From a virus, in the IMG/VR virus record IMGVR_UViG_3300044641_005939, positions 1-64,000 of that record: 64,000 nt of DNA, one strand, 5' to 3'. Below are positions 2,208 through 60,811 of this stretch, in pieces. How positions within the stretch are numbered: position 1 is the first letter of the stretch; every line of letters starts with the position of its first letter. Under the pieces are notes generated by a model. That model was not told where the DNA came from and searched no databases. It worked only from the letters and a program-made list of their open reading frames with translations. The position numbers and the translations under genes are program-made.

Positions 2208-2228
2208 TCTGGAATTTCTCAAGACCCC

Positions 2229-2256
2229 TTGACAGACTTGACGATTAGTGTAAAAT
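2229..2256 (+). promoter_or_regulatory. sigma70-like promoter for rIIB
   Basis: TTGACA at 2229-2234 and TAAAAT at 2251-2256 are separated by exactly 16 bp in the rIIA-rIIB gap. Transcription would start near 2263, leaving a short leader with an SD site before rIIB. It belongs to a set of six promoters in this window with the same spacer length. Confidence 0.7.
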
Positions 2257-2302
2257 AGCAGTATCGTGAGTGTTAAACCTTAAAAAATTAGGAGTTTGGA
2301 TT

Positions 2303-10923: not shown

Positions 10924-10927
10924 AATA

Positions 10928-22491: not shown

Positions 22492-22497
22492 TCAAAA

Positions 22498-36391: not shown

Positions 36392-37117
36392 TTGAGAAAA
36401 AATAAAAACATCAAAAAAAGAAATAAGACTATAAATGCTACAGACAAGATCGTTGTTCCTGAAATCTATAGAAATAGATTAAAACCAAGAACAGAAAATC
36501 AAAGACAATTTATTATTAGTGCTGCTGAAAACAGTATTACTTTTTGTCAGGGTGTTGCTGGGTCTGGTAAAACCCATATCGCTATTGGTATGGCTATTGA
36601 ATATTTATTAGAAGAAAAAGTTAAAAAGATTATTATTACCAGACCAGTAGTAGAGAGTGGAGAAAAAATAGGCTATTTACCGGGAACAGCAGAGGAGAAA
36701 CTTCATCCTTATTTGCTGCCCCTAATAGATGAAATTAATCATTTTATATCCCCAGCACTATATGCTAGTTTAAAATTAAATAATAAAATAGAAGTTGTAC
36801 CATTAGGATTAATGAGAGGTCGTAATTTTCACAATGCATTTATTGTTGCTGATGAATGTCAGAACGCATCATACGATCAATTGAAAATGTTGTTGACAAG
36901 ACTAGGAAACAACAGTAAAATGATACTAACTGGTGATGTTAGTCAGTCTGACCTTCATCGTCATTTGAGGGGTGGTTTTTTTTCAATGATAGAAGCTCTT
37001 AGTGGCCTTAATGGAATTGGTATTTCTAAATTGGAATCATCTGATATTGTAAGAAATCCAATTATAGGTAAAATTTTAGGACGATTAGATTCTTACGAAG
37101 ATGAATCACAAAAATAG
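36392..37117 (+). CDS. phoH: PhoH-like ATPase, TTG start
   Basis: 241 aa. GVAGSGKT (54-61, Walker A), IVADECQNAS (Walker B), and ILTGDVSQSD. PhoH proteins are RNA-helicase-like P-loop ATPases, very common in phages, with an unsettled role. AAGGG at 36381 lies 6 nt before TTG 36392, and no ATG lies near the N-terminus, so TTG is the likely start. Overlaps the HNH gene by 17 bp. Confidence 0.8.
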   Translation: MRKNKNIKKRNKTINATDKIVVPEIYRNRLKPRTENQRQFIISAAENSITFCQGVAGSGKTHIAIGMAIEYLLEEKVKKIIITRPVVESGEKIGYLPGTAEEKLHPYLLPLIDEINHFISPALYASLKLNNKIEVVPLGLMRGRNFHNAFIVADECQNASYDQLKMLLTRLGNNSKMILTGDVSQSDLHRHLRGGFFSMIEALSGLNGIGISKLESSDIVRNPIIGKILGRLDSYEDESQK

Positions 37118-37682
37118 TAAATGCTTAATACTAAATTCTGACTACACCCCATTAGGTATAATTAGCTGGAAAAGAGCTATGGTGTGGTCTATTAAATATC
37201 AAGATAGTAGTTATGGTATAGAAATCATTGATTTTTATAAAAATGACCATATCTTGGGTACTAATAATAAAAAATATCCGATACCATCAGTAGCTAAAAC
37301 TCTTAACTATTTAAGGATGAGAGATGATTATGTAAAGTTCTCTAGGAAAAATTTATTTATTAGAGATAATCATAGCTGTCAATATTGTGGTATAACGCCG
37401 GGTGTCAATCACTTAACATACGATCATGTTATTCCCAAATCAAAATGGCACCATAAAAATGGATCCCCAACATCTTGGACCAATATAGTTACAGCTTGTC
37501 AACAGTGTAACAGAAAAAAGGGCAATAGAACCCCAAAAGAAGCCAATTTAAAACTAAAAACCCTACCATCAATTCCTAAAAAACACCCGAAGTACTTGCC
37601 TATCACCCACCATCTCGTTAAGATAAGATCAGAGATACCAGTAGAGTGGTCAATCTATCTTCCAGAATCTTATTATTCCTGA
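37101..37682 (+). CDS. HNH endonuclease
   Basis: 193 aa. The C-terminal half carries NHSCQYCG, YDHVIPKSKWH and ACQQCNRKKGNRTP: an HNH motif with a zinc-binding CxxC...CxxC. The N-terminal half is a beta-rich domain also present in bacterial HNH proteins (LNSDYTPLGIISWKRAMVW). It could be a housekeeping phage nuclease or a homing enzyme next to phoH. There is no intron or intein sign. Confidence 0.8.
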   Translation: MNHKNSKCLILNSDYTPLGIISWKRAMVWSIKYQDSSYGIEIIDFYKNDHILGTNNKKYPIPSVAKTLNYLRMRDDYVKFSRKNLFIRDNHSCQYCGITPGVNHLTYDHVIPKSKWHHKNGSPTSWTNIVTACQQCNRKKGNRTPKEANLKLKTLPSIPKKHPKYLPITHHLVKIRSEIPVEWSIYLPESYYS

Positions 37683-38743: not shown

Positions 38744-39166
38744 ATGAATAAAAAACAATATCCTTCTAAGTATTCTAACGGCAAAAATGTTTCTGCCGCT
38801 CAGTATATTACTGAAATCATATGCGAGAATAAAGCCAAGCAGGATGGTAAAGATTTGCATTATCGTTTTTGGGTAACTCCAGAGTGGGATAAATATTATA
38901 GAAATCAAATATCATCAGCCCACGCACTGCTCAAGAAATATTCTGATATAGCAATTGTTAAAAGCTTGAAGAACCCTAAAGCCTCAAGAATCTATTCTCT
39001 GCGAGCGCCACACCTTATAGCTATCATAGAGCAAGAACAAAAGCTTTTGGATCAGCAGAATACTGAACTATCGATTAAGCTAGAGCGTCCAGAAAATATT
39101 TCTTTCAATAAGAATACCACAAAAAAATCAAATAGTATTATTTCTAAATTAAAGGATCTAGAATGA
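38744..39166 (+). CDS. hypothetical protein upstream of recA
   Basis: 140 aa from ATG 38744. Pattern WVTPEWDKYYRNQISSAHAL, then KSLKNPKASRIYSLRAPHL suggests a mixed helix domain with a coiled coil near the end. Overlaps recA by 4 bp. Could be a recombination mediator by position; no UvsY signature is visible. Confidence 0.6.
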   Translation: MNKKQYPSKYSNGKNVSAAQYITEIICENKAKQDGKDLHYRFWVTPEWDKYYRNQISSAHALLKKYSDIAIVKSLKNPKASRIYSLRAPHLIAIIEQEQKLLDQQNTELSIKLERPENISFNKNTTKKSNSIISKLKDLE

Positions 39167-40176
39167 CTCTCAAAGAAGATGTAGTGAAAACTTTTGGTGA
39201 CGATATTATATTAAATGGTAATGCTATTGTAGATAGAAAAAGTGTTATTATTCCGGTTAGTCCATCTTTAGATATAGTTTTAAATGGAGGCATACCAGAA
39301 GGTAGCTTTGTGGTATTGACAGGACAACCAAAGTGTGGTAAAACAACAACCTCGTTGGACTTTGCTGCAACAGCACAAAAGCCACAATATCAAGGTAGTC
39401 TTAAAGAACCAAGAGAAGTGTACTACCTCAACATTGAAGGTCGATTGAAAAAAAGAGATTTAGAAGGCATACCGGGATTAGATCTTAATAAGTTTCATGT
39501 AATTGGTTCTCAACAAGGTAAAATCTTACACGCCGAAGAATATCTTCAAATTGGTGAAAAAATTATCAATGAAGTTCCTGGGTGTGTTGTGATTATAGAT
39601 TCATATTCAGCATTATGTACTGAAGCAGAAATTACATCTGAAATGGATAAGATGCAAAGAGCAGATGGTGCGAAACTTTTAGCTAAATTTTGTCGTAAGG
39701 TTGCTAATGTTATTCCTGTAAATAAAAATATTGTTATTGGTATTACTCACTTAATGGGTAATCCAACAGGATATGGTGCAGAGTTTAAGGAGAAAAGTGG
39801 TCAGGCTATTGCGTATCAAACAGATATTAAGTTAAGGGCCAAAACATTCAAGCCTTGGCTACTTAGTGCCGATAGTACTCAAATTGGACAAGAGATTGAG
39901 TGGCAAGTAATCTGCTCCGCATTGGGACCACCGGGAGGTAATATTACTAGCTATATTAGATATGGTCAGGGTGTTGACAAATACATGGAAGCTATCACAC
40001 TAGCATCTGATATGGGTATTATTCATAAGGGTGGTGCTTGGTATACTCTAACAGCCTTACCAGACAAGCCTAAATTTCAAGGAGCAGAAAAGGTAAGACA
40101 ATATTTATTAGAAAATGAACAGGCTTATGTAGATCTGGTTAAAAATATTAAGGATACTATGGGCATCAAATGTTAA
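39163..40176 (+). CDS. recA: RecA/UvsX-like recombinase
   Basis: 337 aa. Walker A GQPKCGKT (54-61), Walker B VVIIDSYSALC, then GITHLMGNPTGYGAEFKEKS in the L1/L2 region. Shorter than bacterial RecA (about 350) and without its C-terminal acidic tail. Strand exchange for phage recombination, linked to a Vsr-like nuclease directly downstream (7-bp overlap). Confidence 0.85.
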   Translation: MTLKEDVVKTFGDDIILNGNAIVDRKSVIIPVSPSLDIVLNGGIPEGSFVVLTGQPKCGKTTTSLDFAATAQKPQYQGSLKEPREVYYLNIEGRLKKRDLEGIPGLDLNKFHVIGSQQGKILHAEEYLQIGEKIINEVPGCVVIIDSYSALCTEAEITSEMDKMQRADGAKLLAKFCRKVANVIPVNKNIVIGITHLMGNPTGYGAEFKEKSGQAIAYQTDIKLRAKTFKPWLLSADSTQIGQEIEWQVICSALGPPGGNITSYIRYGQGVDKYMEAITLASDMGIIHKGGAWYTLTALPDKPKFQGAEKVRQYLLENEQAYVDLVKNIKDTMGIKC

Positions 40177-41058: not shown

Positions 41059-41425
41059 TAATGATGATATTCAGCAGCTAATAACTCTGCTACAAAAATT
41101 AGTTGTTAATAGTTCAGACAATAGTACTGATGAGCCTGTTGTTAAAAAAACTAGAAAACCTAAAACCAAAAACAAGAATACTTCACAGCCTACCAAAAAG
41201 AAATTTATCAATAAGTTCAATGATATGCCAGAAATGAATATGTTTAAGGAAGATGTTGCTATTGATAAAAAACTACAGAAGGGTCCACCAACACCAAGAA
41301 ACAGGCCGTTTTCTTTTGTAAAAGTTCAGTGTCGTGTTTGTGGAAAAAGTGATGAGGTTCCAGAAACTTTGGTTGAGACTATTGATAGATACAAGTGCAA
41401 TAAGTGTGCGACAGGAGCAGGCTGA
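41048..41425 (+). CDS. small zinc-ribbon protein
   Basis: 125 aa. A Lys/Thr-rich disordered N-terminal half, then VQCRVCGKSDEVPETLVE and YKCNKC give a zinc ribbon at the end. Could bind DNA or single-stranded nucleic acid. The AGGAG for the helicase lies in its last codons. Confidence 0.6.
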   Translation: MALDNDDIQQLITLLQKLVVNSSDNSTDEPVVKKTRKPKTKNKNTSQPTKKKFINKFNDMPEMNMFKEDVAIDKKLQKGPPTPRNRPFSFVKVQCRVCGKSDEVPETLVETIDRYKCNKCATGAG

Positions 41426-42876
41426 TGATTTTATGTGATTCCGCAGCAGAAAGAGCTGTTTTAGCTGGTATTTGTACATATGGTGATAGTGCATATTTGG
41501 ATGTTGCCGATATATTGCAGGATTCTTCTTTTACTATTGATAGCAATGCTATTATTTTTAAGTGTTTAAGAACATTATGCGAAAGACAACAAGCAAAAAT
41601 TGATATTGCTTCTATTTATTCTGTAGCACAAGAACTTGAACTTTCTCATATTCTATCTAAAAAAGAAGAGGCTCAACATCTCAAGGCTATAATGGATTTT
41701 CCAGTTAGTCTAGAGAATGTAAGAAAATTTGCAGCTAAAATTAGAAAGCTGGAAATTGCCAGACTACTAAGAAAACAACTAGAGAATACTCAAGACAAGA
41801 TATTAGAAGTAACCGGGAATGAACCCATATCTTCTATCATCGGTATTGCTGAAGATAGTATTTTCAATTTCACATCACTGCTTAATGATAGTGATAGCGG
41901 TCCAGAACAAATTGGATCGTCACTAGATGAATATATTAAACAACTAGAAGAAAATAAAATTGATCAAGTTGGTATTCCTACTGGATTCCCCATTTATGAT
42001 CAGGCTATTGGTGGAGGCTTAAGAAAAGGAACTATTAATGTCATTGGAGCAAGACCCAAAACTGGTAAAACTCTACTATCAGATAATATGGGTAGGAATA
42101 TAGCTGCTCTCGGCATTCCTGTATTAAATATGGATACTGAGATGAATAAAGAAGATCATATTCATAGACTTTTAGCTATGATGACAGAGATAGAAATTAA
42201 TGCTATTGAAACTGGCAAGTTTGCAGAATCGCCAGATAAAAAGAATAAAATATCAAAAGCTGTTGAATCCCTAAAAGCTACAAAGCTATATCACAAAAGT
42301 ATTGCTGGTAAGCCGTTTGAAGATCAACTAGCTATTATGCGTAGGTGGTTAGTTAAAGAAGTAGGATTAAATGATGATGGCACAGCTAAGGATTGTGTCA
42401 TTTTTTATGATTATCTCAAGCTTATGGATAGTGCTGGTATGAATCAGGATCTGAAAGAGTATCAGGTTTTAGGCTTTATGATGACCAGTTTACATAACTT
42501 TGCTGTGAGATACAAGGTTCCTATTGTGGCTTTCATACAGTTGAATAGAGATGGTATTACAAAGGAAAGCACAGATTCTGCGAGTGGTTCTGACAGAATC
42601 ATTTGGTTGTGTAGTAACTTTAGTATCTTTAAGCGTAAGAGCGACGAAGAAATAGCAGAAGATGGATCAGAAAATGGAAACAGAAAACTATTGCCACTTA
42701 TTAGTCGGCATGGTGGTGGTTTGGACGATAATGACTATATTAATTGTAACATGAAGGGCTGGTGTGCTAAAATTATAGAAGGTAAAACACACCTAGAAAT
42801 TAAAAACAATCTCAAATCTAGTGACGAAGGCTTTGTTGTAGACGATGAAGACAATGACCAAATCCCGTTTGAATGA
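41425..42876 (+). CDS. dnaB: DnaB-like replicative helicase
   Basis: 483 aa from ATG 41425 (AGGAG 41413-41417). N-terminal helical domain starting with the DnaB-like SAAERAVLAG; RecA-like motor with ARPKTGKT (209-216), NMDTEMNKEDHIHRLLAMMT, CVIFYDYLKLM, and FIQLNRD. Hexameric 5'-3' helicase of the replication fork. Followed by primase with a 32-bp overlap, a pairing seen in many phages. Confidence 0.88.
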   Translation: MILCDSAAERAVLAGICTYGDSAYLDVADILQDSSFTIDSNAIIFKCLRTLCERQQAKIDIASIYSVAQELELSHILSKKEEAQHLKAIMDFPVSLENVRKFAAKIRKLEIARLLRKQLENTQDKILEVTGNEPISSIIGIAEDSIFNFTSLLNDSDSGPEQIGSSLDEYIKQLEENKIDQVGIPTGFPIYDQAIGGGLRKGTINVIGARPKTGKTLLSDNMGRNIAALGIPVLNMDTEMNKEDHIHRLLAMMTEIEINAIETGKFAESPDKKNKISKAVESLKATKLYHKSIAGKPFEDQLAIMRRWLVKEVGLNDDGTAKDCVIFYDYLKLMDSAGMNQDLKEYQVLGFMMTSLHNFAVRYKVPIVAFIQLNRDGITKESTDSASGSDRIIWLCSNFSIFKRKSDEEIAEDGSENGNRKLLPLISRHGGGLDDNDYINCNMKGWCAKIIEGKTHLEIKNNLKSSDEGFVVDDEDNDQIPFE

Positions 42877-43996
42877 TCAGCTAAAGTTAAAGATAGTCTG
42901 TGATGAGGTGTGTGATAATATTGAATCATTATTATCTATACTAAATCTAGAATATAAATTTAACCATAAGATGATTACAATGGCGTGTCCCATTCATGGT
43001 GGAGATAATCTCTCCGCACTTAACCTATATCCAGAGGGCGAAAGCTATCGTGGTAATTGGAAGTGTAGAACTCATGGATGTGAAAAAACATTTAAAGGTT
43101 CAGTAATAGGTTTTATTAGAGGAGTATTATCGAGTCAAAAATATGGCTGGGAAAAACCAGGAGATGATACCTGTTCTTTTCAAGAAGCTGTAAACTTTGC
43201 TACAAGTTTTATTAATAAAGATATTAGCGACATCAAAATATCTAAAATAGACAGAGAAAAGAAACAATTTACAAGCGTTATAAATTATTTGCAACCAGAC
43301 AATACTCCTCAACAACACGAGGTAACACGCAAGCAGATTGTTAAATCTTTAAGTATTCCAGCACAGTATTATCTAGACAGAAATTACTCATCGGATATTC
43401 TAGTAAAATATGATGTTGGTTTGTGCGATAAAATTGGTAAAGAAATGTATAATAGAATAGTGGTACCAATATATAATATGGAATATACCCATATGGTTGG
43501 TTGTACCGGCAGAAGCATTTTTGAAAAATGTTCACAATGTAAAGGCCACCACAGCCCAACAGATTCTTGTCCAACACCAGATGATATATGGAAGCACTGC
43601 AAATGGAAACACAATTATGAGTTCAAAAGCCAAAACCACCTATATAATTTCTGGTTTGCTAAAGAATTCATACTAAAAACACACACAGCTATTATAGTAG
43701 AAAGTCCGGGAAATGTTTGGAGACTAGAAGAAAGCGGTATTCACAATAGTGTGGGTATTTTTGGATCTTCCCTAAGCGATAGACAAAAGATATTATTAGA
43801 CTCGTCTGGCGCTATGAATCTGATTATATTAACTGATAATGATGAGGCTGGTCGTAAAGCAGCAGAACAGATTAAAGCCAAATGTCAAAACACATACAGA
43901 ATATTTATACCACAAATCAATAAGTCAGATATTGGTGAAATGACCGTGGAAGAAATTAATAAAGAAATTAAACCATATTTAGAAAGTATAGTATGA
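42845..43996 (+). CDS. DnaG-type primase (zinc finger plus Toprim)
   Basis: 383 aa. Zinc-binding domain: MACPIHGGDNLSALN, CRTHGCEKTF. Toprim: AIIVESPGNVWRLEES (Glu), ILTDNDEAGRKAAEQI (DxD). A second set of Cys (CSQCKGHHSPTDSC) lies between, which is an insertion. Synthesises RNA primers at the fork with the helicase encoded just before. ATG 42854 is an alternative start. Confidence 0.82.
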   Translation: MKTMTKSRLNDQLKLKIVCDEVCDNIESLLSILNLEYKFNHKMITMACPIHGGDNLSALNLYPEGESYRGNWKCRTHGCEKTFKGSVIGFIRGVLSSQKYGWEKPGDDTCSFQEAVNFATSFINKDISDIKISKIDREKKQFTSVINYLQPDNTPQQHEVTRKQIVKSLSIPAQYYLDRNYSSDILVKYDVGLCDKIGKEMYNRIVVPIYNMEYTHMVGCTGRSIFEKCSQCKGHHSPTDSCPTPDDIWKHCKWKHNYEFKSQNHLYNFWFAKEFILKTHTAIIVESPGNVWRLEESGIHNSVGIFGSSLSDRQKILLDSSGAMNLIILTDNDEAGRKAAEQIKAKCQNTYRIFIPQINKSDIGEMTVEEINKEIKPYLESIV

Positions 43997-44583
43997 CTCA
44001 GATTATTGCTTTTGCTGGACGTAAACAGTCTGGTAAAACCACCTGTTCAGAATTTGTTACTAAATATCTGAATGGTACGGTGAAGCCATTCAATAGTACC
44101 AAAATATATAATTTTGCTGATCCTCTAAAAAAAGATATTTGTATGAATATTTTAAACATGAGTGAACAACAATGTTATGGAACAGATGATGATAAGAATA
44201 CTACAACAGAGTGTTATCTTGATGGTAAACAACTAACAGCCAGAGAAGTAATGCAATATGTTGGCACTAACTTTTTTCGTAAGATGAAACACGATGTTTG
44301 GTCTTCTGCTACTATTAACAAGATTAAGCTAGAAAATCCCGGCTTTGCTATTATTGCAGATTGTAGGTTTCCTAATGAGGTTGAGGCGATACGAAATGCT
44401 GGTGGTTTAATTATTAAGCTTACCAGAAATCCATATCATTCTGATCATGAGAGCGAAATAGCATTAGACCCTCAGAACTATGATCATAATAATTTTGATC
44501 TAGTGGTGGATAATGCACAGATGTCTATACCAGAACAAAATCTTGTGATTCAAACATTTCTACAACAAAAAGGTTTTATTTAA
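43993..44583 (+). CDS. deoxynucleoside monophosphate kinase
   Basis: 196 aa P-loop kinase of T4 gene 1 type. GRKQSGKT at 9-16, KIYNFADPLKKDI, LTAREVMQYVGT, and the late IIADCRFPNEVEAI. Phosphorylates dNMPs for dNTP synthesis; it would follow dCMP deaminase/host thymidylate synthase. Overlaps primase by 4 bp and the next gene by 1 bp. Confidence 0.85.
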   Translation: MTQIIAFAGRKQSGKTTCSEFVTKYLNGTVKPFNSTKIYNFADPLKKDICMNILNMSEQQCYGTDDDKNTTTECYLDGKQLTAREVMQYVGTNFFRKMKHDVWSSATINKIKLENPGFAIIADCRFPNEVEAIRNAGGLIIKLTRNPYHSDHESEIALDPQNYDHNNFDLVVDNAQMSIPEQNLVIQTFLQQKGFI

Positions 44584-45626
44584 TGATTATTACTTATCTA
44601 AGGAGTAGTTCATACGGCACCCACTCAATGTGTGCTCAACAATATTTTCTTGAGTATAATCTTGGAATAAGATCTCCATCTAATCAAAAGGCCGATAAAG
44701 GAACTATTGTTCATAAGGTATTAGAAATATTAGCCTATATTAAACTGTCTATTCAAAATAATGAAAAACATTATAATGATGATATTGTTGGTAAAATTAG
44801 TGTGGACAAATATAGTATAGACAAGATTACTGAAAGGGTTTATAATCATTATTCTGGTCAGTTTAAACATCACAATTGGACACCTAAAGATTTTAAAGAT
44901 TGCCGCCTGTGGGTGGATAAAGCGATAACAGAACACAATGCCACCTTCGATCCACGAAATAGGGAGATACTCCAACCAGAACAGCGTTTTGATATTGTTA
45001 TCAACAAACCTTGGGCTTATTATAAGTATCAAACTAAAAATGAAAATCTAGAGGGCTATTTGGCCATTAAAGGAACCATAGATTTAATCACTAAGGTTAA
45101 TGATAATACTATCGAGATAGTGGACTGGAAAACTGGTCGCAGATTAGATTGGGCCACTGGTCAAGAAAAAACATTAGCTAAACTACAAAACGACCCTCAA
45201 CTCAGAATATATCATTATGCTGTAAGCCAATTATATCCAGATATGGATCATATTATGTTTACTATTAATTTTATTAATGATGGTGGTGCTTTTACGGTGT
45301 CTTATGATAAGAGCGATCTTTCAAAAACAGAGGATATGATTAGGCAAAAATTTGAAACTATTAAAAATACACAAGTACCACAACTTAACAAGAGTTGGAA
45401 ATGTACAAAGTTGTGTCATTTTGGTAAAACAACATTTGAGAATAGTCATGTATTACCAATAGTCGAATATAGAGATAATCAGATTTGTACAAATGGTAGC
45501 ACGATGACCAAGTGTGAACAAATTAAACATGATATACAACTCAAAGGAATAGAAAACGTAGTTGACCAGTATACAGCTCCTGGTTATACTGTAGGAAAGT
45601 ACAAGGCACCCGGAAGTTCAGAATGA
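44583..45626 (+). CDS. Cas4/RecB-like PD-(D/E)XK exonuclease
   Basis: 347 aa. SSSYGTHSMCAQQYFLEYNL at the N-terminus is the RecB-nuclease/Cas4 motif; KGTIDLITK with IVDWKTGRRLD carries GxxD and (D/E)xK. A C-terminal Cys pair (CTKLCHF) plus the N-terminal and late Cys could bind an Fe-S cluster as in Cas4. Single-strand exonuclease in recombination. Overlaps the polymerase gene by 4 bp. Confidence 0.8.
   Translation: MIITYLRSSSYGTHSMCAQQYFLEYNLGIRSPSNQKADKGTIVHKVLEILAYIKLSIQNNEKHYNDDIVGKISVDKYSIDKITERVYNHYSGQFKHHNWTPKDFKDCRLWVDKAITEHNATFDPRNREILQPEQRFDIVINKPWAYYKYQTKNENLEGYLAIKGTIDLITKVNDNTIEIVDWKTGRRLDWATGQEKTLAKLQNDPQLRIYHYAVSQLYPDMDHIMFTINFINDGGAFTVSYDKSDLSKTEDMIRQKFETIKNTQVPQLNKSWKCTKLCHFGKTTFENSHVLPIVEYRDNQICTNGSTMTKCEQIKHDIQLKGIENVVDQYTAPGYTVGKYKAPGSSE
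45562..45590 (+). promoter_or_regulatory. possible promoter before polymerase genes
   Basis: TTGACC (45562-45567), 17-bp spacer, TATACT (45585-45590), inside the end of the exonuclease gene and 33 bp before the polymerase ATG. The spacer differs from the 16 bp of the six intergenic promoters, and it is intragenic, so it may be chance. Confidence 0.3.
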
Positions 45627-47503
45627 ATTATATTCCACTACATTGCCATTCTATGTTTTCATTATTGGATGGCTTGTCTCAACCTAAACAAATTGCTAAT
45701 AGATGTAAGGAAATTGGCGCAACAGCATGTGCATTAACAGATCACGGTAATATTGCTGGTGCAATTAAATTTTATTCCGCAATGAAGCAAGCTGGAATTA
45801 AACCAATTCTAGGTTGTGAACTATATGTCTGTGATCAAGATCCTACTATACAAGAAAAAGAAAATAGAAATTTAAGTCATTTTATTGTTTTAGCAAAAAA
45901 TTATAAGGGCTGGAAAGATCTTATCAAGATAGTCTCAGAGTCTAATAGACCAGACTATTATTACCATAAACCCAGATTAGATCTAAAAACTATTGGAAAA
46001 TTAAATAGTGGTAATCTTCTAGCTATTACCGGCCATCTAGGTTCAACATTAGCAGACACTATTCTGGATAATTATCAGTTAAAATCTAACTGGAAAGAAT
46101 TGGGTATATCCCATATCAATTATCTAAAAACTATATTCAATAGTCAAGTCTTTTTAGAAGCCCAGCTAATGGATTCAGAAGGTCTTCCTGTGCAAAAAAT
46201 ACTCACAGAAGCTATTAGAGAATTGGGTAAAGAAACTAATACATATGTTATATGCACCCCAGATGCTCATTATTGTAGAAAAGAAGATGCTATAGATCAA
46301 AGAATCCTACTATGTAATAATCTTAAAACTACATTTCAAGATATAAGTAGGAAAATTAGTAATGATGAAGATGTTCCAATGGGATGTTTTTTTACATCAG
46401 ATAACTATCATATTCCTTCACAGGAAGAAATACAACAGTGGCATACCGAAACAGAAATAAAAAATACTAATTTTGTAGCTAATCTTATTGAAGAATTTGA
46501 TATTCTTAGTAAGCCACAATTGCCTCCGTTTGATTGTCCAACTGGTTTTGATCAAGATGAATATTTGAGAGAACTATGTAGGCATGGGTGGAGAGATAAA
46601 ATTGCTAATAAAATTCCAAAAGAAAATCAACAGCCATATTTAGATCGTATCAAATATGAACTAGAAGTTTTGCAGGGTGCTGGGTTGTCTAGTTATTTTC
46701 TTATTGTTCAAGATATTGTAAATTATGTTAGGGCAAATAACTGGCTACCTGGACCCGGTAGAGGTAGTGCTGCTGGTTGTTTGGTATCATATTTAATTGG
46801 TATTACTAGTATTGATCCTATAAAATATAATCTATTCTTTGATAGATTTTACAATTCTGGACGAAATACAAAAGATCATATCTCCATGCCAGATATTGAT
46901 GTGGACGTTCCTATCAACAAACGGGAAGAGATAATTCAATATATTAAAAATAAATATGGTCATGATAAAGTATCTCAAATGATTACCTTTAATACTATTA
47001 AGGGCAGAGGAGCATTAAAAGATGTACTAAGAGTATATGGTAATATATCTTTTGATGAAATGAATAGAATTACAAAAAATATTCCTGATGAAGCCAAGAT
47101 TGCGGACGAATTACAGGAAATGAAAGAAGAAACCGGCGAAGCCTCAATTATACGTTGGGCATTAGAGAATAATGCGGACAAACTCAAAGAATGGTGCTAT
47201 ATTGATGATAATGGAGAATTACAAGGCCCCTTGGCAAAGCGCTTTGAACAGGCTATTAGACTAGAAGGAACCAAATCAAATCAGAGCAAGCACGCGGCTG
47301 GTATTTGTATTAGTTCTCAGCCTCTCAAAGAGGTTTGTCCAATGGTTTATGATTCTAAGAACTATCAATTAATCGCTGGTATGGAAATGCAAGACTTAGA
47401 AAGTATTGGTATTATCAAATTTGATATTTTAGGTATTGCATATTTAGATAAAATTATGTTAATTAAAGATCTTTTAATTCAAGGAGTAAGCAATGTCAGT
47501 TAA
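45623..47503 (+). CDS. dnaE: DNA polymerase III alpha, N-terminal half (PHP and palm)
   Basis: 626 aa. PHP domain: LHCHSMFSLLDG and ALTDHGNIAGA. Polymerase palm: GRGSAAG (379-385), PDIDVD with catalytic D424 and D426, KHAAGIC, and the third Asp D601 in IKFDILG. All three catalytic aspartates of the C-family are here. The chain stops 25 residues after D601, exactly before the fingers. No intein motif or frameshift is visible at the end. The fingers to OB half is encoded 853 bp downstream. The two proteins must join to form an active polymerase (inference). Confidence 0.9.
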   Translation: MNYIPLHCHSMFSLLDGLSQPKQIANRCKEIGATACALTDHGNIAGAIKFYSAMKQAGIKPILGCELYVCDQDPTIQEKENRNLSHFIVLAKNYKGWKDLIKIVSESNRPDYYYHKPRLDLKTIGKLNSGNLLAITGHLGSTLADTILDNYQLKSNWKELGISHINYLKTIFNSQVFLEAQLMDSEGLPVQKILTEAIRELGKETNTYVICTPDAHYCRKEDAIDQRILLCNNLKTTFQDISRKISNDEDVPMGCFFTSDNYHIPSQEEIQQWHTETEIKNTNFVANLIEEFDILSKPQLPPFDCPTGFDQDEYLRELCRHGWRDKIANKIPKENQQPYLDRIKYELEVLQGAGLSSYFLIVQDIVNYVRANNWLPGPGRGSAAGCLVSYLIGITSIDPIKYNLFFDRFYNSGRNTKDHISMPDIDVDVPINKREEIIQYIKNKYGHDKVSQMITFNTIKGRGALKDVLRVYGNISFDEMNRITKNIPDEAKIADELQEMKEETGEASIIRWALENNADKLKEWCYIDDNGELQGPLAKRFEQAIRLEGTKSNQSKHAAGICISSQPLKEVCPMVYDSKNYQLIAGMEMQDLESIGIIKFDILGIAYLDKIMLIKDLLIQGVSNVS

Positions 47504-47675
47504 AAAGTTTCAAGATTTAGAAGTTGGTGCTGTATTTAATTACGATAGTTTAGAGTATGTTAAAATCAATCCAGAAAAGGTTAGCTGCTGTAGGTCGGTT
47601 AACGCCTCTCAGGTTACTGATCCTACTAAGAGAACTATGGTAAAGCCAGACCAAGAGGTTTCGGTTGATGAATAA
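47493..47675 (+). CDS. 60-aa protein between polymerase halves
   Basis: FQDLEVGAVFNYDSLEYVKI is a small beta-rich start, similar in pattern to the 79-aa protein at 9054. Two Cys (SCCRS). It overlaps the end of the polymerase N-half by 11 bp, with AAGGAG inside that gene as ribosome site. Could be a structural helper for the split replicase or an unrelated small protein. Confidence 0.6.
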   Translation: MSVKKFQDLEVGAVFNYDSLEYVKINPEKVSCCRSVNASQVTDPTKRTMVKPDQEVSVDE

Positions 47676-48363
47676 TAATAAAATTTGCGTTTTTGATTTT
47701 GAGACAGACGGCTCTAATCCGAGAGAATGTAGTCCTGTTCAAATTGCGGCTATTATGATTGATCCCGTAAGATTAGAGGTAATTGAAGGGTCTGAATTTA
47801 ATATTAACTTTAAGCCAGAAGTTTTAGAAGGTAATGATAGCTATAAATATGAAACAGATATTTTAAGTTTTCATTCTAAGGTTCGTGGTTGTAGTCAAGA
47901 AGATATTCTAGAGTCTTGGAAAAAATTTCCAAAACAAGAACATTCTTGGAATTTATTTGTTAACTATTTAGATAAATATCATTCAAGAACATCTAAGAAA
48001 AGTCAGTTTAGTGCGCCCATAGCTGCTGGATATAATATTTATAGGTTCGACCTACCAATTATTGATAGACTTAGTGTTAAATACGGTAATGTGAATAAGG
48101 AAAATAAAACAGATTTATTCTATCCAAGAGACGTAATTGATGGTATGAATCTAGTGTTTTATTGGTTTGAAAATAATACAGACTTAAAGAATTTCACACT
48201 GGATACTGTGAGAGATTACTTTGGTTTGTCCAAAGAGGGCGCACACGATGCCCTTAAAGATGTTAAGGATACTGCTCAATTGATCATTCGTTTTATGAAG
48301 TTACACAGAACTTTGAGTCAAAAAATTCAATTTAGGAACGCATTTTTAAAAGACAATGTCTAA
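47668..48363 (+). CDS. dnaQ: DnaQ-like DEDDh 3'-5' exonuclease
   Basis: 231 aa from ATG 47668. ExoI: VFDFETDG with D10 and E12; ExoII: GYNIYRFDLPIIDRL; ExoIII: GAHDALKDVKDTA (H and D). All DEDDh residues are visible. Proofreading exonuclease for the polymerase. It sits between the two halves of the polymerase and overlaps the C-half gene by 8 bp, so the three proteins are made together. Confidence 0.88.
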   Translation: MNNNKICVFDFETDGSNPRECSPVQIAAIMIDPVRLEVIEGSEFNINFKPEVLEGNDSYKYETDILSFHSKVRGCSQEDILESWKKFPKQEHSWNLFVNYLDKYHSRTSKKSQFSAPIAAGYNIYRFDLPIIDRLSVKYGNVNKENKTDLFYPRDVIDGMNLVFYWFENNTDLKNFTLDTVRDYFGLSKEGAHDALKDVKDTAQLIIRFMKLHRTLSQKIQFRNAFLKDNV

Positions 48364-49972
48364 AAAATTTCAATATTCTTGTGGGTGTGGTTTTGATATT
48401 CTAGAAGACGATAAAGATAAAAAAATTTATTTTGATTCTTCTATAGAAAATATCAATCTTGATTGTGCCAGAACCTGGGCTTTAATATCTGATGGAAATA
48501 CCAAGGGATGTTTTCAATTAGAGTCCAGACTCGGTCGTTCAATGGCTAAAAAATTAAAACCAGAAAATATAGAACAATTATCAGCACTCATTAGTATTAT
48601 GAGGCCGGGTTGTTTGGAAGCTATTAGAGATGGTAAAACTGTCTCTAGTCATTATATTGATAAAAAGAATGGTTTAGAGAGTGTAGATTATTTTCACGAG
48701 TCTCTAAGACCCATATTAGAAAATACATATGGGGAAATGGTTTATCAAGAGCAGGCTATGGAAATTACTAAGGCTATAGCTGGATTCAATTTGCAAGAAG
48801 CTGATATGTTAAGAAAAGCTATCGGTAAGAAAAAGCCAGAAGAAATGGCTAAAGTTAAGTCTAAATTTTTAGAGGGTTCTAACAAACTAGGTATTGTTAC
48901 CAATGAAGAAGCTGAACAAATTTTTAGTTGGGTAGAAAAATCTCAAAGATATTCTTTTAATAAGTCCCACTCTGTTAGCTATGCTATTAATGCGTATTTA
49001 TCAGCATATGCCAAAGCGCATTTTCCAAGGATATTTTTCGCATCCTATCTCCGTTTTGCAAAAGACAAAATAGACCCTCAAGCAGAGATCAAAGAATTAG
49101 TTCAAAACGCAAACGAGATGGATGTTACAGTCCACACGCCCGACTTGAGAAACTTAAATGAATTTTTCATTTTAAAAGATAATAAGATTTATTTCGGTAT
49201 AACAGATATTAAGGGTGTTGGTGCTTCTGTATTTGAAAAACTCAAACAGATATCATCCACAATTGATTTTAATAATCTAACTTGGCTTAAACTACTATTT
49301 AATGTTTTAAATAATGTTAATTCTACAGCAGCAAAAGCTTTGATTCAAAGTGGGGCCACTAATTTTATTAAAATGACACGAAATGAAATGTTGTTTGAAT
49401 ATAATCTTATTAGTGGTTTAACTAAGAAGGAATCTCAATATATTATAGATAATCTAGATAGGTTTAAAAGCCTATCAGAAGGTTTGAATAGTGTATTAAC
49501 TATGCCAAGAATTAATAAGAACCGTAAAACGATTGTAGAAGATCTTTTAAGATCACTAATTAATCCTCCTCACTCTTTAGAAGATACAGCAGAGTGGTTG
49601 GCGGACTCAGAGGATTCTTTATTAGGTTGCTCTATCACATGTTCAAAGATAGATATGTATGATATTAGTATGACTAATATTACATGTAGAGAACTTAAAA
49701 CAACAGCGTCTACAAACAATTTAATTCTGGGCGGAGAAATAGATTTCATTAATGTTACAAAAACAAAAAGTGGAAAAAATCCTGGAACAGAAATGGCGTT
49801 TGTTACAATGACAGACACAACAGGCTCTGTTGACTCAATAGTTTTCTTTCCTGACAAATATAAAGAATATAAAAATCTTTTATTCACTGGAAATATTATT
49901 ATTGTTAAGGGAGCTAAGTCAAAGAGTGGAGATGGGTTGATTGTAGAAAAAGCCTATATCGCAAAAACTTGA
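48356..49972 (+). CDS. dnaE: DNA polymerase III alpha, C-terminal half (fingers, HhH, OB)
   Basis: 538 aa. The first 35 residues are extra, with YSCGCGFDI and LDC that could bind zinc. Fingers start at ISDGNTKGCFQLES, followed by LSALISIMRPGC, MVYQEQAME, FNLQEADMLRKAIGKKK and FNKSHSVSYAI. HhH around ITDIKGVGASVFEKL. OB fold near residues 440-530 (GGEIDFINVTKTKSG, VDSIVFFPD). The catalytic Asp residues are on the other chain. I saw no clear QxxLF-type clamp motif. The order after the fingers is intact. Confidence 0.9.
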   Translation: MSKKFQYSCGCGFDILEDDKDKKIYFDSSIENINLDCARTWALISDGNTKGCFQLESRLGRSMAKKLKPENIEQLSALISIMRPGCLEAIRDGKTVSSHYIDKKNGLESVDYFHESLRPILENTYGEMVYQEQAMEITKAIAGFNLQEADMLRKAIGKKKPEEMAKVKSKFLEGSNKLGIVTNEEAEQIFSWVEKSQRYSFNKSHSVSYAINAYLSAYAKAHFPRIFFASYLRFAKDKIDPQAEIKELVQNANEMDVTVHTPDLRNLNEFFILKDNKIYFGITDIKGVGASVFEKLKQISSTIDFNNLTWLKLLFNVLNNVNSTAAKALIQSGATNFIKMTRNEMLFEYNLISGLTKKESQYIIDNLDRFKSLSEGLNSVLTMPRINKNRKTIVEDLLRSLINPPHSLEDTAEWLADSEDSLLGCSITCSKIDMYDISMTNITCRELKTTASTNNLILGGEIDFINVTKTKSGKNPGTEMAFVTMTDTTGSVDSIVFFPDKYKEYKNLLFTGNIIIVKGAKSKSGDGLIVEKAYIAKT

Positions 49973-50039: not shown

Positions 50040-50411
50040 ATGAATATTGTTATGTTAAGAGGCAATCTAGCTAGGGATCCTGAATTAAGAGTTATTAACA
50101 CTGGCGATAAGCAAACATCAGTTGTTAATTTTACAGTTGCTACTTCTCGTGAGTTTACAAAGGCTAATGGCTCACAAGATAAGGTAACATCTTTTATTCA
50201 GTGCGAAGCATGGGACAGTGGTGCCGAGGCTATTGCTTCTTCTTTTAAGAAGGGTGATCTGGTTATGGTCGAGGGTTCTCTCCGCAATGATAGCTGGGAG
50301 AAGGATGGAGTTAAGCACAGCACATTGAAGGTGCGTGTCAATAACTTTGGTAAGATTATCAAGACCCGTCGTTCTGATAAAACCCAGGAACCAGAGACTG
50401 TATCGTTCTAA
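50040..50411 (+). CDS. ssb: single-stranded DNA-binding protein
   Basis: 123 aa OB-fold SSB: NIVMLRGNLARDPELRV at the start, VVNFTVATSREF, FIQCEAWDSGAEAIASSFKK, GDLVMVEGSLRNDSW. The usual acidic DDxPF-like tail is replaced by QEPETVSF. Coats ssDNA at the fork. Own strong promoter and terminator, so highly expressed, separate from the polymerase operon. Confidence 0.88.
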   Translation: MNIVMLRGNLARDPELRVINTGDKQTSVVNFTVATSREFTKANGSQDKVTSFIQCEAWDSGAEAIASSFKKGDLVMVEGSLRNDSWEKDGVKHSTLKVRVNNFGKIIKTRRSDKTQEPETVSF

Positions 50412-50497: not shown

Positions 50498-52141
50498 ATG
50501 AAAAAAAGACTACTAATTGCTAATGATTCCAGTTTTTTAGATACTGGATATGGAATTTATGGAAGAGAATTAATTTCTAGACTACATAAGTCTGGTAAAT
50601 ATGAAGTAGCAGAATTAGGTTGCTATGCTGAAAAAGATCATCCTAAAACTAAATCTATTCCATGGAAATTCTACCCTAATGCTGTAAATGTTGCTGATAA
50701 GAGGTTTGACCAATACAGATCTAACAATATAAATCAGTTTGGCCTATGGAGATTCAATAGGGTTTTAGTAGATTTTAAACCACACATTGTGTTTGATATT
50801 CGTGACTATTGGATGTATGCTTATCAAGAAACTAGTCCATATAAAAAATATTTTCACTGGGTTATTATGCCCACCACAGACTCGGCACCACCTAAAACAG
50901 AGTGGCTGTATACTTTTGCTAATGCTGATCTTATCGTGCCATATACTCAGTGGGCATATAAAGTATTATCACAAACCTGTGGTAGTAATATTAATCTTTT
51001 CCCTAAAATTGCTAATGCTGGTATAAACCCATCAGAATTCTTTCCTATAGAGAATAAGCAATCGCACCAGCAGAAATATTTTGGTAAGGATGTTTCTATT
51101 GTTGGTGTTGTTATGAGAAACCAAAGACGCAAGCTATTAGCAGATATGATGATGGCTTATCGTAAATATCTAGAAGCACTAAAGCTTTCTAACAATATTG
51201 AACTATATAATAAGAGCCATCTCTATTTGCACACATCTTATCCAGAAGATAATGGCTGGGATTTACCCAGCTTGCTACTAGAGTTTAATTTACTGGATAA
51301 AACGTATTTTACCTACACATGCAAACAATGCAACTCATTCTTTCCTGCAAAATTTCAAACATCTGTTACAACTTGCAAAAATTGTAAGCAAAAAAGTGCT
51401 GCTATCGCCAATCCAAACAATGGAGTTAATACGAGTCAGCTTAATGAAATTTATAATCTATTTGATCTGTTTGTTCAATATGCCATCTGCGAAGGATTTG
51501 GTATGCCTCAAGTAGAAGCTGCTGCTTGTGGATTACAGATAGCTTCTGTTGATTATAGTGCTATGACAGAAATTGTAGAGAATCTTCATGGTTATAAAAT
51601 ACCATTAGTTACTCTATTTAGAGAAATGGAAACCAATGCTGATAGAGCATTACCAGATAATGATGCTACTAGTAAAATTATTTATAATCATATGGTGAAT
51701 ATATCGCCAGAACAAAAACTAGCTAATAGTAAAATTATAAGAGAAAAATGTTTAGAACAATATACATGGGATGCTGTATATAATGTTTGGGATGAGTGTT
51801 TTGATTCTATTGATATTAGAAAAAAACCATCATGGGATACACCAGACTTAAATATCACGAACCATACCTCTGTTAAAGTACCAAAAGATTTAGATCAAGC
51901 AGAATTTATAGAGTTTATTTGTACTAATGTTATTAATTCACCAGAATTATTAAAAACAGCCCATACACAGTGCTTAATTAGAGATAGTGTAAGTGGTATT
52001 GTTGCTAGAAATGGAACTCTTTCTAGTCTTAATAAACAGCAAATTATTGAAATTCTAGAAGGACATATGAATAATAAAATTGTTTGTGAAAAAATGAGAA
52101 CACAACCTAACACTCTAATTAAAGAAGATTTTATACCATGA
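50498..52141 (+). CDS. GT4-like glycosyltransferase with zinc ribbon insertion
   Basis: 547 aa. N-domain start RLLIANDSSFLDTGYGIYGR; donor domain with YAICEGFGMPQVEAAACGLQ, EX7E motif present. Between about residues 269 and 290 lies TCKQCNSFFPAKF and TTCKNCKQKS, a CxxC...CxxC zinc ribbon inserted in the sugar-binding half, unusual for GT4. The last 90 residues form an added helical domain. No SD is seen; start ATG 50498 is after a pyrimidine-rich stretch. Confidence 0.78.
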   Translation: MKKRLLIANDSSFLDTGYGIYGRELISRLHKSGKYEVAELGCYAEKDHPKTKSIPWKFYPNAVNVADKRFDQYRSNNINQFGLWRFNRVLVDFKPHIVFDIRDYWMYAYQETSPYKKYFHWVIMPTTDSAPPKTEWLYTFANADLIVPYTQWAYKVLSQTCGSNINLFPKIANAGINPSEFFPIENKQSHQQKYFGKDVSIVGVVMRNQRRKLLADMMMAYRKYLEALKLSNNIELYNKSHLYLHTSYPEDNGWDLPSLLLEFNLLDKTYFTYTCKQCNSFFPAKFQTSVTTCKNCKQKSAAIANPNNGVNTSQLNEIYNLFDLFVQYAICEGFGMPQVEAAACGLQIASVDYSAMTEIVENLHGYKIPLVTLFREMETNADRALPDNDATSKIIYNHMVNISPEQKLANSKIIREKCLEQYTWDAVYNVWDECFDSIDIRKKPSWDTPDLNITNHTSVKVPKDLDQAEFIEFICTNVINSPELLKTAHTQCLIRDSVSGIVARNGTLSSLNKQQIIEILEGHMNNKIVCEKMRTQPNTLIKEDFIP

Positions 52142-57952: not shown

Positions 57953-59562
57953 CTTTCGTTACAGGAATATGGGATCTTGGTCGGGGAGATGCAAAAGAGG
58001 GCTGGGCCAGATCTTTTGAGCATTATATTAATAATTTTATTAATCTATTAATAGAGATGAAGGATCATAATCTTATTATTTTTATTGATCCATCATTAGA
58101 AAATTTGGTTTGGCAACACAGAAAGCAACATAACACTAGAATATATCATCATACTAAACAAGATTTTAAACAAAACTTTTTTCCATTTTTTGAGCAAGTA
58201 CAAAGTATAAGAAATAATCCAGAATGGTACAATAGAGTTGGATGGTTAAAAGATAGTGCTCAAGGATCATTAGAGTATTATAATCCAATGGTTATGAGCA
58301 AGATGTTCTTGCTGCATAATGCTAAAATCTTTAATCCGTTTGATACTGACTATTTTTTCTGGATAGATGGCGGCATCACAAATACTTTAAGTTTAGGATA
58401 TTTTCAAGATAATACTATTATTGAGAAAATCCAATCATTAGCCGAAAAATTCTTGTTCGTTTGTTTTCCATATGAAACAGATAGTGAGATTCATGGATTT
58501 TGTATCAATGGCATGAAAAAGTTTGCCAAATCAGATACTGTTAATAGGGTGGCTCGTGGTGGATTTTTTGGTGGTCATAAAGACCATATCTCTGCTGCTA
58601 ATGACACATATTATCATCTATTAAATGATTCTTTAAATAGTGGATACATGGGAACAGAAGAAAGTATTTTTACCATAATGACCTATTTAGATAGTGATAA
58701 ATATCGCTATGAAATGATTAATGGTGATGGTCTTATTTATGCTTTTTTTGAAAATCTAAAAAATAAAAATTTTAAAAGTAAATCTACAAATACTGTTAAT
58801 CTTTATATTAATACATATAATTCACCAGAACAGCTACAAATGGTTTTAGATTCTTTTGAAAAATATGAGCCAGACCTATTAGAAAAAACTAATAAAATAT
58901 TAATAAATAATTCTATTAATAATGACCTATTTCCTAAATATGATCTTATCTCGTCTAAGTATAATTTTACAGAAATACGGCGTGGTAATATTGGTATCTG
59001 TGGTGGGCGACAATTGAGTGCGGAACACTTTAATGAATCGTCTGCTGATTATATGTTATTTTTTGAAGATGATATGTTGATTGATTATGAGGGTGAGTGT
59101 GCTTTTGGTTTTAGAAAAAGAGCTGATAAATTATTTAGTAAAATTTTAAGTATCATGAACAAAGAAAAATATGATTTTCTAAAATTAAGTTTTAGTGAAT
59201 TTTATGGCCATAATGGAGAGCAGTGGAGCTGGCACAATGTTCCAGAGAAACAAAGACTAGAGTATTTTGGACCAATAGATCATAAACCACCAACACTATA
59301 TAATAATATAAAAACATTAGATGGTTTGCCCTATGCAGATGGAGAGGTTTACTATTGTAATTGGCCCCATATTATTAATAGAGAGGGTAATCAGAAAATG
59401 TTTCTGGATACTAAATGGGCCTATCCTTATGAGCAAACATGGATGAGCCACATATACACTCTCACCAAACAAAAGAAAATTAAGTCTGGTATATTATTAT
59501 CTAGTCCCATAACCCATAACAGAACACACCACTATCATGCAAGCGAAAGAAAAGAAAACTAA
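57940..59562 (+). CDS. HtrL/YibB-like and GT2-like fusion glycosyltransferase
   Basis: 540 aa in two parts. Residues 1-260: ITFVTGIWDLGRGDAKEGWA and DYFFWIDGGIT follow the HtrL_YibB family (predicted glycosyltransferases). Residues 280-540: VNLYINTYNSPEQLQMVLDS and YMLFFEDDMLIDYE follow a GT2-like fold with the DDM metal site. A double enzyme could add two sugars in turn. It overlaps the GT60-like gene by 26 bp. Confidence 0.72.
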   Translation: MSRITFVTGIWDLGRGDAKEGWARSFEHYINNFINLLIEMKDHNLIIFIDPSLENLVWQHRKQHNTRIYHHTKQDFKQNFFPFFEQVQSIRNNPEWYNRVGWLKDSAQGSLEYYNPMVMSKMFLLHNAKIFNPFDTDYFFWIDGGITNTLSLGYFQDNTIIEKIQSLAEKFLFVCFPYETDSEIHGFCINGMKKFAKSDTVNRVARGGFFGGHKDHISAANDTYYHLLNDSLNSGYMGTEESIFTIMTYLDSDKYRYEMINGDGLIYAFFENLKNKNFKSKSTNTVNLYINTYNSPEQLQMVLDSFEKYEPDLLEKTNKILINNSINNDLFPKYDLISSKYNFTEIRRGNIGICGGRQLSAEHFNESSADYMLFFEDDMLIDYEGECAFGFRKRADKLFSKILSIMNKEKYDFLKLSFSEFYGHNGEQWSWHNVPEKQRLEYFGPIDHKPPTLYNNIKTLDGLPYADGEVYYCNWPHIINREGNQKMFLDTKWAYPYEQTWMSHIYTLTKQKKIKSGILLSSPITHNRTHHYHASERKEN

Positions 59563-60811
59563 AACTATCTTTATACAAATAGCATCATATAGAGATCCAC
59601 AACTTATACCAACAATAGAGGATGCTATTAATAAGGCTAAATACCCAGACAGATTAAGGTTTGGCATATCTTGGCAACACTGTGAAAGTGATAGCTGGGA
59701 TAATATGGATAAGTATAAATATGATAGTAGATTTAAAATTATAGATATAGATTATCAAGATGCTCAGGGTGTTTGCTGGGCTAGAAACCTACTGCAAAAT
59801 TTATATCAAGGTGAAGACTATACATTACAACTAGATAGTCATCATAGATTTGTTCAAAATTGGGATATGATCCTAATAGATATGCTTACTGAACTACAAA
59901 ACGATGGTTATCCTAAACCATTAATAACATCTTATATTCCTAGTTTTGATCCAGATAATGATCCAGAAGCTAGAGTTAATGAACCGTGGAAAATGACTTT
60001 TGATAGATTTATTCCAGAGGGGGCTGTGTTTTTTTTACCAGCAGGACTGAATTCTGCTATTGAGAATATTAATAAACCAATTCCTGGACGATTCTATAGC
60101 GCTCATTTTGCTTTTACTCTTGGCTCTTTTTCCAAAGAAGTTCAACATGATCCAAACTATTATTTTCATGGTGAAGAAATTAGTGTGGCCGTTAGAGCGT
60201 TTACGCATGGCTATGATATATTCTATCCTCATAAAGTAATATGTTGGCATGAATATACAAGGAAGGGTAGAAGTAAACAGTGGGATGATGTTAAATCATG
60301 GGTAGACAAAAATAATATCTGCCATGATAGAAATAGAAAGCTTTTTGGTATGGATAATGTTACGAACGATATTAATTTTGGACGATATGGTTTTGGTACA
60401 GCTCGGAGTTTGGGTGATTATGAAAAATATGCAGGATTAAAATTTTCTAAAAGAGCTATTACACAAGATGTTGTGGATCACAAACCACCAAATCTTGATA
60501 ATATGAAGATCTCAGATGAAGACTTTAATAATAGTCTATTATATATCTTTAAGCACTGTATTGATATTGGCTATAATCAAGTACCAGAGAAGGATTACGA
60601 TGTTTGGGCAGTCGCATTTAAAGACGGCGACGGTAATGAAATGTATAGACAAGATGCTACTCCAGAGGAAATACAGCAAATGAAAAATGATCCCGACGGA
60701 TATTGTAAAGTGTGGAGAACTTTCAATACAGAAAAGGTGCCGTCTAGCTGGATAGTGTGGCCCCATAGTAAAAGTAAAGGATGGTCAGAACCAATTACTG
60801 GTAAAATTTAA
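59537..60811 (+). CDS. GT60-like GlcNAc transferase
   Basis: 424 aa. TIFIQIASYRDPQLIPTIED and FGISWQHCES are the start of the GlcNAc (GT60, Skp1-GnT1) family; LQLDSHHRF has the metal-binding DxH form. HGEEISVAVRAFTHGYDIFY and HEYTRKGR complete the core. A C-terminal 90-residue domain (DVWAVAFKDGDGNEMYR, then VWPHSKSKGW) is extra. The known eukaryotic enzyme adds GlcNAc to hydroxyproline in Skp1; here the acceptor is unknown. Its stop overlaps the stop of the minus-strand gene. Confidence 0.8.
   Translation: MQAKEKKTKTIFIQIASYRDPQLIPTIEDAINKAKYPDRLRFGISWQHCESDSWDNMDKYKYDSRFKIIDIDYQDAQGVCWARNLLQNLYQGEDYTLQLDSHHRFVQNWDMILIDMLTELQNDGYPKPLITSYIPSFDPDNDPEARVNEPWKMTFDRFIPEGAVFFLPAGLNSAIENINKPIPGRFYSAHFAFTLGSFSKEVQHDPNYYFHGEEISVAVRAFTHGYDIFYPHKVICWHEYTRKGRSKQWDDVKSWVDKNNICHDRNRKLFGMDNVTNDINFGRYGFGTARSLGDYEKYAGLKFSKRAITQDVVDHKPPNLDNMKISDEDFNNSLLYIFKHCIDIGYNQVPEKDYDVWAVAFKDGDGNEMYRQDATPEEIQQMKNDPDGYCKVWRTFNTEKVPSSWIVWPHSKSKGWSEPITGKI

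What the first reader, a model, noticed from the sequence alone, without database searches (positions are those of the whole stretch)
45623..49972. Split DNA polymerase III alpha with a proofreading exonuclease between its halves
Seen: the first gene carries PHP and palm with all three catalytic Asp (D424, D426, D601) and stops 25 residues after D601. The second carries fingers, HhH and OB. A 60-aa gene and a DEDDh exonuclease lie between, all overlapping by 8-11 bp. Known: cyanobacterial DnaE is split by an intein, at a different point; here no intein motif is visible. The second half has a new Cys-containing N-terminus that may be the joining surface. Inference: a four-gene replicase assembled without splicing, with polymerase and exonuclease made in equal amounts.
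Basis: partly seen in the sequence, partly recalled or inferred. Interest (0 to 1): 0.85.

Follow-up and report, generated by a model that had tools for sequence, protein, structure and literature searches.

The report
Phage DNA polymerase in two pieces
A widespread group of uncultured phages makes its main DNA-copying enzyme as two separate proteins with a proofreading-enzyme gene between their genes, and the pattern held in all 179 related versions examined, so it is an old and working arrangement rather than a broken gene.

Summary
A DnaE-type polymerase (C family) is cut at the palm/fingers boundary: window 45623-47503 carries PHP, palm and thumb, and 48356-49972 carries fingers, HhH and OB. 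The halves match complementary parts of one model (TIGR00594 1-571 and 577-1022). A DEDDh exonuclease lies between them. All 179 distinct relatives with N, X and C present keep the order N-half, exonuclease, C-half, none fused. They form one clade (SH-aLRT 100, quick trees) apart from intact DnaEs. N, X and C are under strong purifying selection (dN/dS 0.07-0.09), with polymerase and exonuclease catalytic residues invariant. No intein or intron was detected at the junction, although inteins occur elsewhere in the same genes of some relatives. Thirteen records had no family A or B polymerase. Two reader inferences fail. The 60-aa gene is a variable passenger, so this is not a four-gene enzyme. 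Equal dosage is unsupported: in some relatives kilobases of other genes separate exonuclease and C-half. The Cys hairpin is absent in some lineages. Best reading: separate subunits assemble without splicing. Precedents exist (T4-like gp43A/B, Mth PolB, a minimal split Pol III alpha in jumbo phages). New variant of a known kind; assembly is inferred.

The parts
45623..47503 (+). Pol III alpha N-half (626 aa): PHP domain with putative metal ligands H7 H9 D16 H41 E66 H86 H138 D214 H216; palm with catalytic D424 D426 D601; thumb
   Evidence: Pfam/PHROG/NCBIfam (TIGR00594 1-571); aligns to E. coli DnaE up to residue 563-564; 104/104 palm Asp; dN/dS 0.066
47493..47675 (+). 60-aa small beta-barrel protein (F..L.VG..F..NG..Y.K....SCC..NA); lineage-specific passenger gene
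   Evidence: model pLDDT 94.8; BFVD neighbours are uncharacterised small phage proteins incl. N4 gp21; recognised in 111 of 179 relatives; dN/dS 0.25
47665..48363 (+). DEDDh 3'-5' exonuclease (D11 E13 D129 H194 D199), DnaQ-like proofreading subunit; ATG start alternative at 47668
   Evidence: RNase_T PF00929, PHROG 192 'DNA polymerase exonuclease subunit'; invariant residues; between the halves in all 179 relatives scored; dN/dS 0.07
48356..49972 (+). Pol III alpha C-half (538 aa): N-terminal CGC hairpin, fingers, HhH, OB fold; no tau-binding C-terminal domain recognised
   Evidence: Pfam/NCBIfam (TIGR00594 577-1022; PRK05673 581-1052 of 1146); AF2 pLDDT 88.5; the 18 PDB matches at E<=0.001 are Pol III alpha or PolC entries; dN/dS 0.089
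48356..48433 (+). 26-aa N-terminal extension of the C-half with CGC motif (beta-hairpin)
   Evidence: CGC in 141/148 distinct C-halves, absent in L057-type and L348-type lineages; strands 12-18 and 21-25 in the model
44583..45626 (+). PD-(D/E)XK/Cas4-like exonuclease gene, overlaps the N-half start by 4 bp (same replication cluster)
41404..43996 (+). DnaB-like helicase (41404-42876) and Toprim primase (42845-43996), same cluster
50040..50411 (+). single-strand DNA-binding protein downstream of the C-half

Best explanation
The locus encodes one C-family replicative polymerase as two separately translated subunits, N (PHP-palm-thumb) and C (fingers-HhH-OB), plus a DnaQ-like exonuclease X from a gene between them. 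N and C are inferred to dock non-covalently across the natural palm/fingers boundary to rebuild the active site and DNA channel, with X as the proofreading subunit. The split is ancestral to the phage lineage and is not repaired by splicing. The likely origin is insertion of DNA (a homing element or a gene cassette) into a single dnaE in an ancestor, followed by loss of the mobile part and fixation of the two-piece enzyme; the origin is not shown.
For: Shown: complementary match of the halves to one model (TIGR00594 1-571 / 577-1022) and to E. coli DnaE (up to 563-564 / from 585). 179 distinct relatives in order N-X-C, 0 fused. One clade, SH-aLRT 100, apart from intact phage and bacterial DnaEs (quick trees). 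dN/dS 0.066-0.089 for N, X, C and correlated N-X-C distances r 0.78-0.84. Catalytic residues invariant. No intein model in the window, while the same libraries find inteins inside N or C genes of L003, L013, L038, L041, L348, a positive control. No intron-like RNA at gathering or relaxed threshold. No family A or B polymerase found in 13 records. Kilobases of other genes between X and C in some relatives argue against frameshift or read-through rejoining. Precedent for reassembly: split gp43A/B of Aeromonas phage 25 co-purify with polymerase activity, and split NrdA of Aeh1 is functional (PMC2988022).
Against: No physical evidence: binding of N, X and C was not modelled (no complex prediction available) or assayed. 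The 13-14 large records are of unknown completeness, so a further polymerase outside them is not excluded. RNA trans-splicing with an unrecognised intron is not strictly excluded.
Confidence: 0.85

Rival explanations
1. The two halves are joined after translation or transcription: by an unrecognised split intein or by RNA trans-splicing, giving one polypeptide.
For: Split inteins with an ORF between the pieces interrupt N at residue 381/382 in L003, L009, L011, L013 and C in L348, so trans-joining machinery occurs in this gene family.
Against: No intein motif at the N/C junction in the window; N ends about 25 residues after D601 and C has only a short extension before its DnaE-like sequence; no intron family hit; other genes of up to 3.9 kb lie between the pieces in some relatives.
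Confidence: 0.06
2. The split polymerase is a decaying or accessory enzyme and the phage replicates with another polymerase (its own or the host's).
For: Jumbo phages of group 2.2 carry a minimal split Pol III alpha beside a family B replicase (PMC7824862); the records here are not known to be complete.
Against: dN/dS 0.07-0.09, all catalytic residues conserved; no family A or B polymerase in 13 records up to 233 kb; neighbours are helicase, primase, SSB, and a clamp-loader-like ATPase is in all 13 records.
Confidence: 0.07
3. X is an obligatory bridge: N and C assemble only when X is present, so proofreading and polymerization are structurally tied. (A refinement of the best explanation, not exclusive of it.)
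For: X lies between N and C in all 179 relatives scored; it is retained in a lineage that lost the PHP metal ligands.
Against: Conserved order is also expected for an ordinary operon; the known epsilon-binding site of DnaE is on the PHP domain (PMC3919608), which lies wholly in N.
Confidence: 0.12
4. Sequencing or assembly artefact of an intact dnaE.
For: Fragmented polymerase genes in databases can be frameshifts or assembly errors (PMC3919608).
Against: 179 distinct relatives from many metagenomes; an exonuclease gene lies inside the cut.
Confidence: 0.01

Closest known systems
T4-like phage gp43A/gp43B (Aeromonas phages 25, 44RR), split family B polymerase
   Same: Replicative phage polymerase in two polypeptides without splicing; for phage 25 the pieces co-purify with polymerase activity (PMC2988022)
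   Different: Family B, described there for a few phages; the interruption is a seg-type homing endonuclease or an untranslated spacer, not a proofreading gene
Split minimal Pol III alpha of group 2.2 jumbo phages (PMC7824862)
   Same: C-family catalytic alpha module in two standalone proteins, predicted to reconstitute
   Different: Described as lacking other Pol III domains, encoded by distant genes, and accompanied by a family B polymerase; here full PHP/palm/thumb + fingers/HhH/OB, one cluster, no other polymerase found in 13 records. The two were not compared by sequence here
Rossellomorea phage phiT1 (PV767480) split DnaE
   Same: Cut at the same palm/fingers boundary, 573 + 469 aa, with a 49-aa ORF between
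   Different: No exonuclease between; groups with an intact Bacillus-phage DnaE, so an independent split on these trees
Actinophage split DnaE (Gordonia phages Sienna and Suzy, Mycobacterium phage Aikoy, Microbacterium phage Chivey)
   Same: Two adjacent DnaE-like genes, with a small ORF between in Sienna and Aikoy
   Different: First piece only about 318-345 aa, so cut roughly after PHP rather than after palm
Cyanobacterial split DnaE intein
   Same: DnaE from two genes
   Different: Joined by a split intein, at a different point; no intein found here
Methanothermobacter thermautotrophicus PolB
   Same: Replicative polymerase encoded by two polypeptides (PMC7776575)
   Different: Family B, archaeal; no exonuclease gene inserted (own knowledge)

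Membership tests
C-family (Pol III alpha / DnaE) DNA polymerase | pol-beta-type palm with three catalytic Asp (E. coli D401, D403, D555) | tested here: met
   D424, D426, D601 in 104/104
C-family (Pol III alpha / DnaE) DNA polymerase | PHP, palm/thumb, fingers, HhH, OB in that order | tested here: met
   distributed over two ORFs; tau-binding C-terminal domain not recognised
PolC | DEDDh exonuclease inserted in the PHP domain of the same polypeptide | tested here: not met
   Exonuclease is a separate ORF between palm and fingers; PolC models match far more weakly than DnaE models
Split intein DnaE (cyanobacterial type) | N-intein on first half, C-intein on second half | tested here: not met
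   No TIGR01445 or Intein_splicing hit in the window; positive control in relatives
Split replicase assembled without splicing | two separate ORFs universal in the sampled clade, no intact copy found | tested here: met
   (records of unknown completeness)
Split replicase assembled without splicing | physical association and polymerase activity of the two halves | not testable with these tools
   No complex prediction or assay available
DnaQ/epsilon DEDDh proofreading exonuclease | D-E-D-H-D active site | tested here: met
   D11 E13 D129 H194 D199
DnaQ/epsilon DEDDh proofreading exonuclease | binds polymerase alpha | not testable with these tools
   No complex prediction or assay available
Proofreading-type PHP domain | nine metal ligands | tested here: met
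   H7 H9 D16 H41 E66 H86 H138 D214 H216 in the window; D16, H41, E66, H86, H138, H216 are 103-104 of 104, H7/H9 are H in 86 of 104 rows (many of the others are gaps or start differently), D214 checked on fewer rows; largely lost in the L348 lineage. Position 138 is His where my recollection of other DnaEs is Cys

The most novel reading that the evidence does not exclude
A natural C-family replicase of three subunits in which the proofreading exonuclease is also an assembly factor holding palm-half and finger-half together, so the polymerase becomes active only with its proofreader bound; fixed across a whole uncultured phage lineage.
Probability: 0.12. Interest if true: 0.85.

Novelty: new variant of a known kind. 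Interest (0 to 1): 0.62.

Why it matters
In the papers I could search, unspliced split replicative polymerases are described for family B (T4-like phages, Methanothermobacter), and for C-family only a minimal form beside a family B enzyme in jumbo phages. Here a full C-family polymerase, the only one recognised in 13 records of these phages, has been in two pieces long enough for the lineage to split into deep branches (N-half identity down to about 35%). It offers a natural cut point for a split Pol III alpha (useful for engineering a conditional polymerase), bears on how homing or intein invasion turns genes into multi-subunit enzymes, and warns annotators that these DnaE 'fragments' are real.

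Tried and rejected
1) Artefact or pseudogene: rejected, 179 distinct relatives. 2) Intein at the junction: no hit. 3) Intron: no Rfam hit. 4) The 60-aa gene as a general replicase subunit: rejected, because its type is not recognised in 68 of 179. 6) Pseudomonas phage Y1 and the Salmonella AFYI record as split relatives: both hits are intact, chromosome-like DnaE. 7) PF02916 clamp search: no hit but its control did not ring, so uninformative. 8) PMC3201878 (which I believed to be a survey of viral replicases) is not held.

Full report
Check of the observation. The window is part of a 69.5-kb IMG/VR virus record. The four overlapping ORFs are as described. Pfam, PHROGs and NCBIfam place PHP and palm/thumb in 45623-47503, a DEDDh exonuclease in 47665-48363, and fingers, HhH and OB in 48356-49972. 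The halves are complementary: the N-half matches TIGR00594 positions 1-571, the C-half 577-1022; against E. coli DnaE the N-half aligns to residue 563-564 and the C-half from 585. Thus little or nothing of the core is missing or duplicated and the cut falls at the palm/fingers boundary.

Distribution. tblastn in 50,697 phage records gives no hit of 60% identity or more, but IMG/VR holds many relatives. Profile searches over all fetched viral loci gave 179 distinct X proteins with N and C nearby, in the order N-X-C in all, and no fused form in this clade. The fused polymerases found (L350, L351, L353, L413-L417) are distant (31% identity or less). Trees of N+C put the split sequences in one clade (SH-aLRT 100) apart from bacterial and phage intact DnaEs, with phiT1, cut at the same boundary, elsewhere (quick searches without bootstrap; the branch joining phiT1 to an intact Bacillus-phage DnaE has support 90-91). 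So on these trees the split happened at least twice at this boundary.

Constraint. Median dN/dS is 0.066 (N), 0.07 (X), 0.089 (C), 0.25 (S); pairwise distances of N, X and C correlate at 0.78-0.84 (shared ancestry alone gives such a correlation, so it shows co-inheritance, not contact). Palm Asp residues and exonuclease residues are invariant. The PHP metal ligands are retained in the window's lineage and largely replaced in the L348 lineage, where X is kept.

The small gene. S is a confident small beta barrel resembling uncharacterised small phage proteins. It is recognised in 111 of 179; elsewhere the N-X interval holds a 70-aa ORF, zinc-ribbon-like ORFs, a UDG-family gene, an HNH-like ORF (by eye), or nothing. 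It is therefore not a general subunit.

Mobile elements. Relatives carry a split intein at N residue 381/382 with an ORF between the intein pieces (L003, L009, L011, L013, L041), an in-frame intein in C (L038, L041; L190 similar), and a split intein in C of L348. These interruptions are sporadic, while the N/C split is universal in the sample and has no intein. Genes such as ThyX or a nucleotidyltransferase-like gene lie between X and C in some relatives. This supports, without proving, an origin by insertion.

Replisome context. Helicase, primase, Cas4-like nuclease and SSB genes flank the cassette. UvsX, RNR, rIIA/rIIB and a clamp-loader-like ATPase are in the window, and the clamp-loader match is in all 13 records tested (this profile also rings in all 14 control genomes, so it is not specific to phages). 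No family A or B polymerase and no beta-clamp (PF02767) was found in those 13 records; completeness is unknown.

Structure. The C-half model (pLDDT 88.5) matches DnaE/PolC entries; TM-scores normalised by the query are 0.34-0.67 for the 18 significant matches. The N-terminal CGC hairpin is predicted at block pLDDT 76-82. Its absence in two lineages argues against an essential joining surface.

Literature. Split gp43A/B and NrdA (PMC2988022); Mth PolB (PMC7776575); split minimal Pol III alpha in jumbo phages (PMC7824862); split family A polymerase in MEP401 phages (PMC10580990); C-family survey (PMC3919608). Five paper searches aimed at split polymerases brought up no report of this clade in the passages I read; subscription journals are mostly not held.

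Shown: sequence, universality in the sampled clade, constraint, absence of detected inteins or introns. Inferred: non-covalent assembly, proofreading role of X, origin.

Noticed in passing
L003, L009, L011, L013, L041 (N gene); L348 (C gene): Split inteins (TIGR01445 hits in L003, L013, L348) interrupt polymerase genes at residue 381/382 of N and after RYAFNK of C, with an ORF between the intein pieces; L348 is thus a polymerase in three pieces, one junction spliced and one not.
   Followed up: partly
L038, L041, L190 C-half: In-frame intein inside the C-half: Intein_splicing PF14890 in L038, TIGR01445 in L038 and L041, intein-containing-protein model hits in L190.
   Followed up: partly
L348, L366, L375, L388, L389, L394, L398, L404: Lineage with N of about 525-535 aa that has lost nearly all PHP metal ligands but keeps the separate DEDDh exonuclease.
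   Followed up: partly
L094 (Lokiarchaeota MAG), L093 (Flavobacteriales MAG): Contigs of this phage lineage sit in cellular MAGs; possible host hints or binning errors.
   Followed up: no
window 37101-37682: HNH endonuclease gene next to a PhoH-like gene.
   Followed up: no
window 102-3172, 4453-5352, 39163-40176: T4-like rIIA, rIIB, clamp-loader-like ATPase and UvsX genes in a phage with a C-family polymerase.
   Followed up: partly
window 10904-11875, 16294-17445, 21391-23616, 50498-52141, 59537-60811: Sugar-epimerase, aminotransferase, dehydrogenase and glycosyltransferase genes, probably glycan synthesis (50498-52141 judged glycosyltransferase-like by eye only).
   Followed up: no
OQ572403.1 (phage Y1), AFYI01000001.1: Phage-collection records that appear to contain bacterial chromosomal DNA around an intact dnaE.
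   Followed up: no
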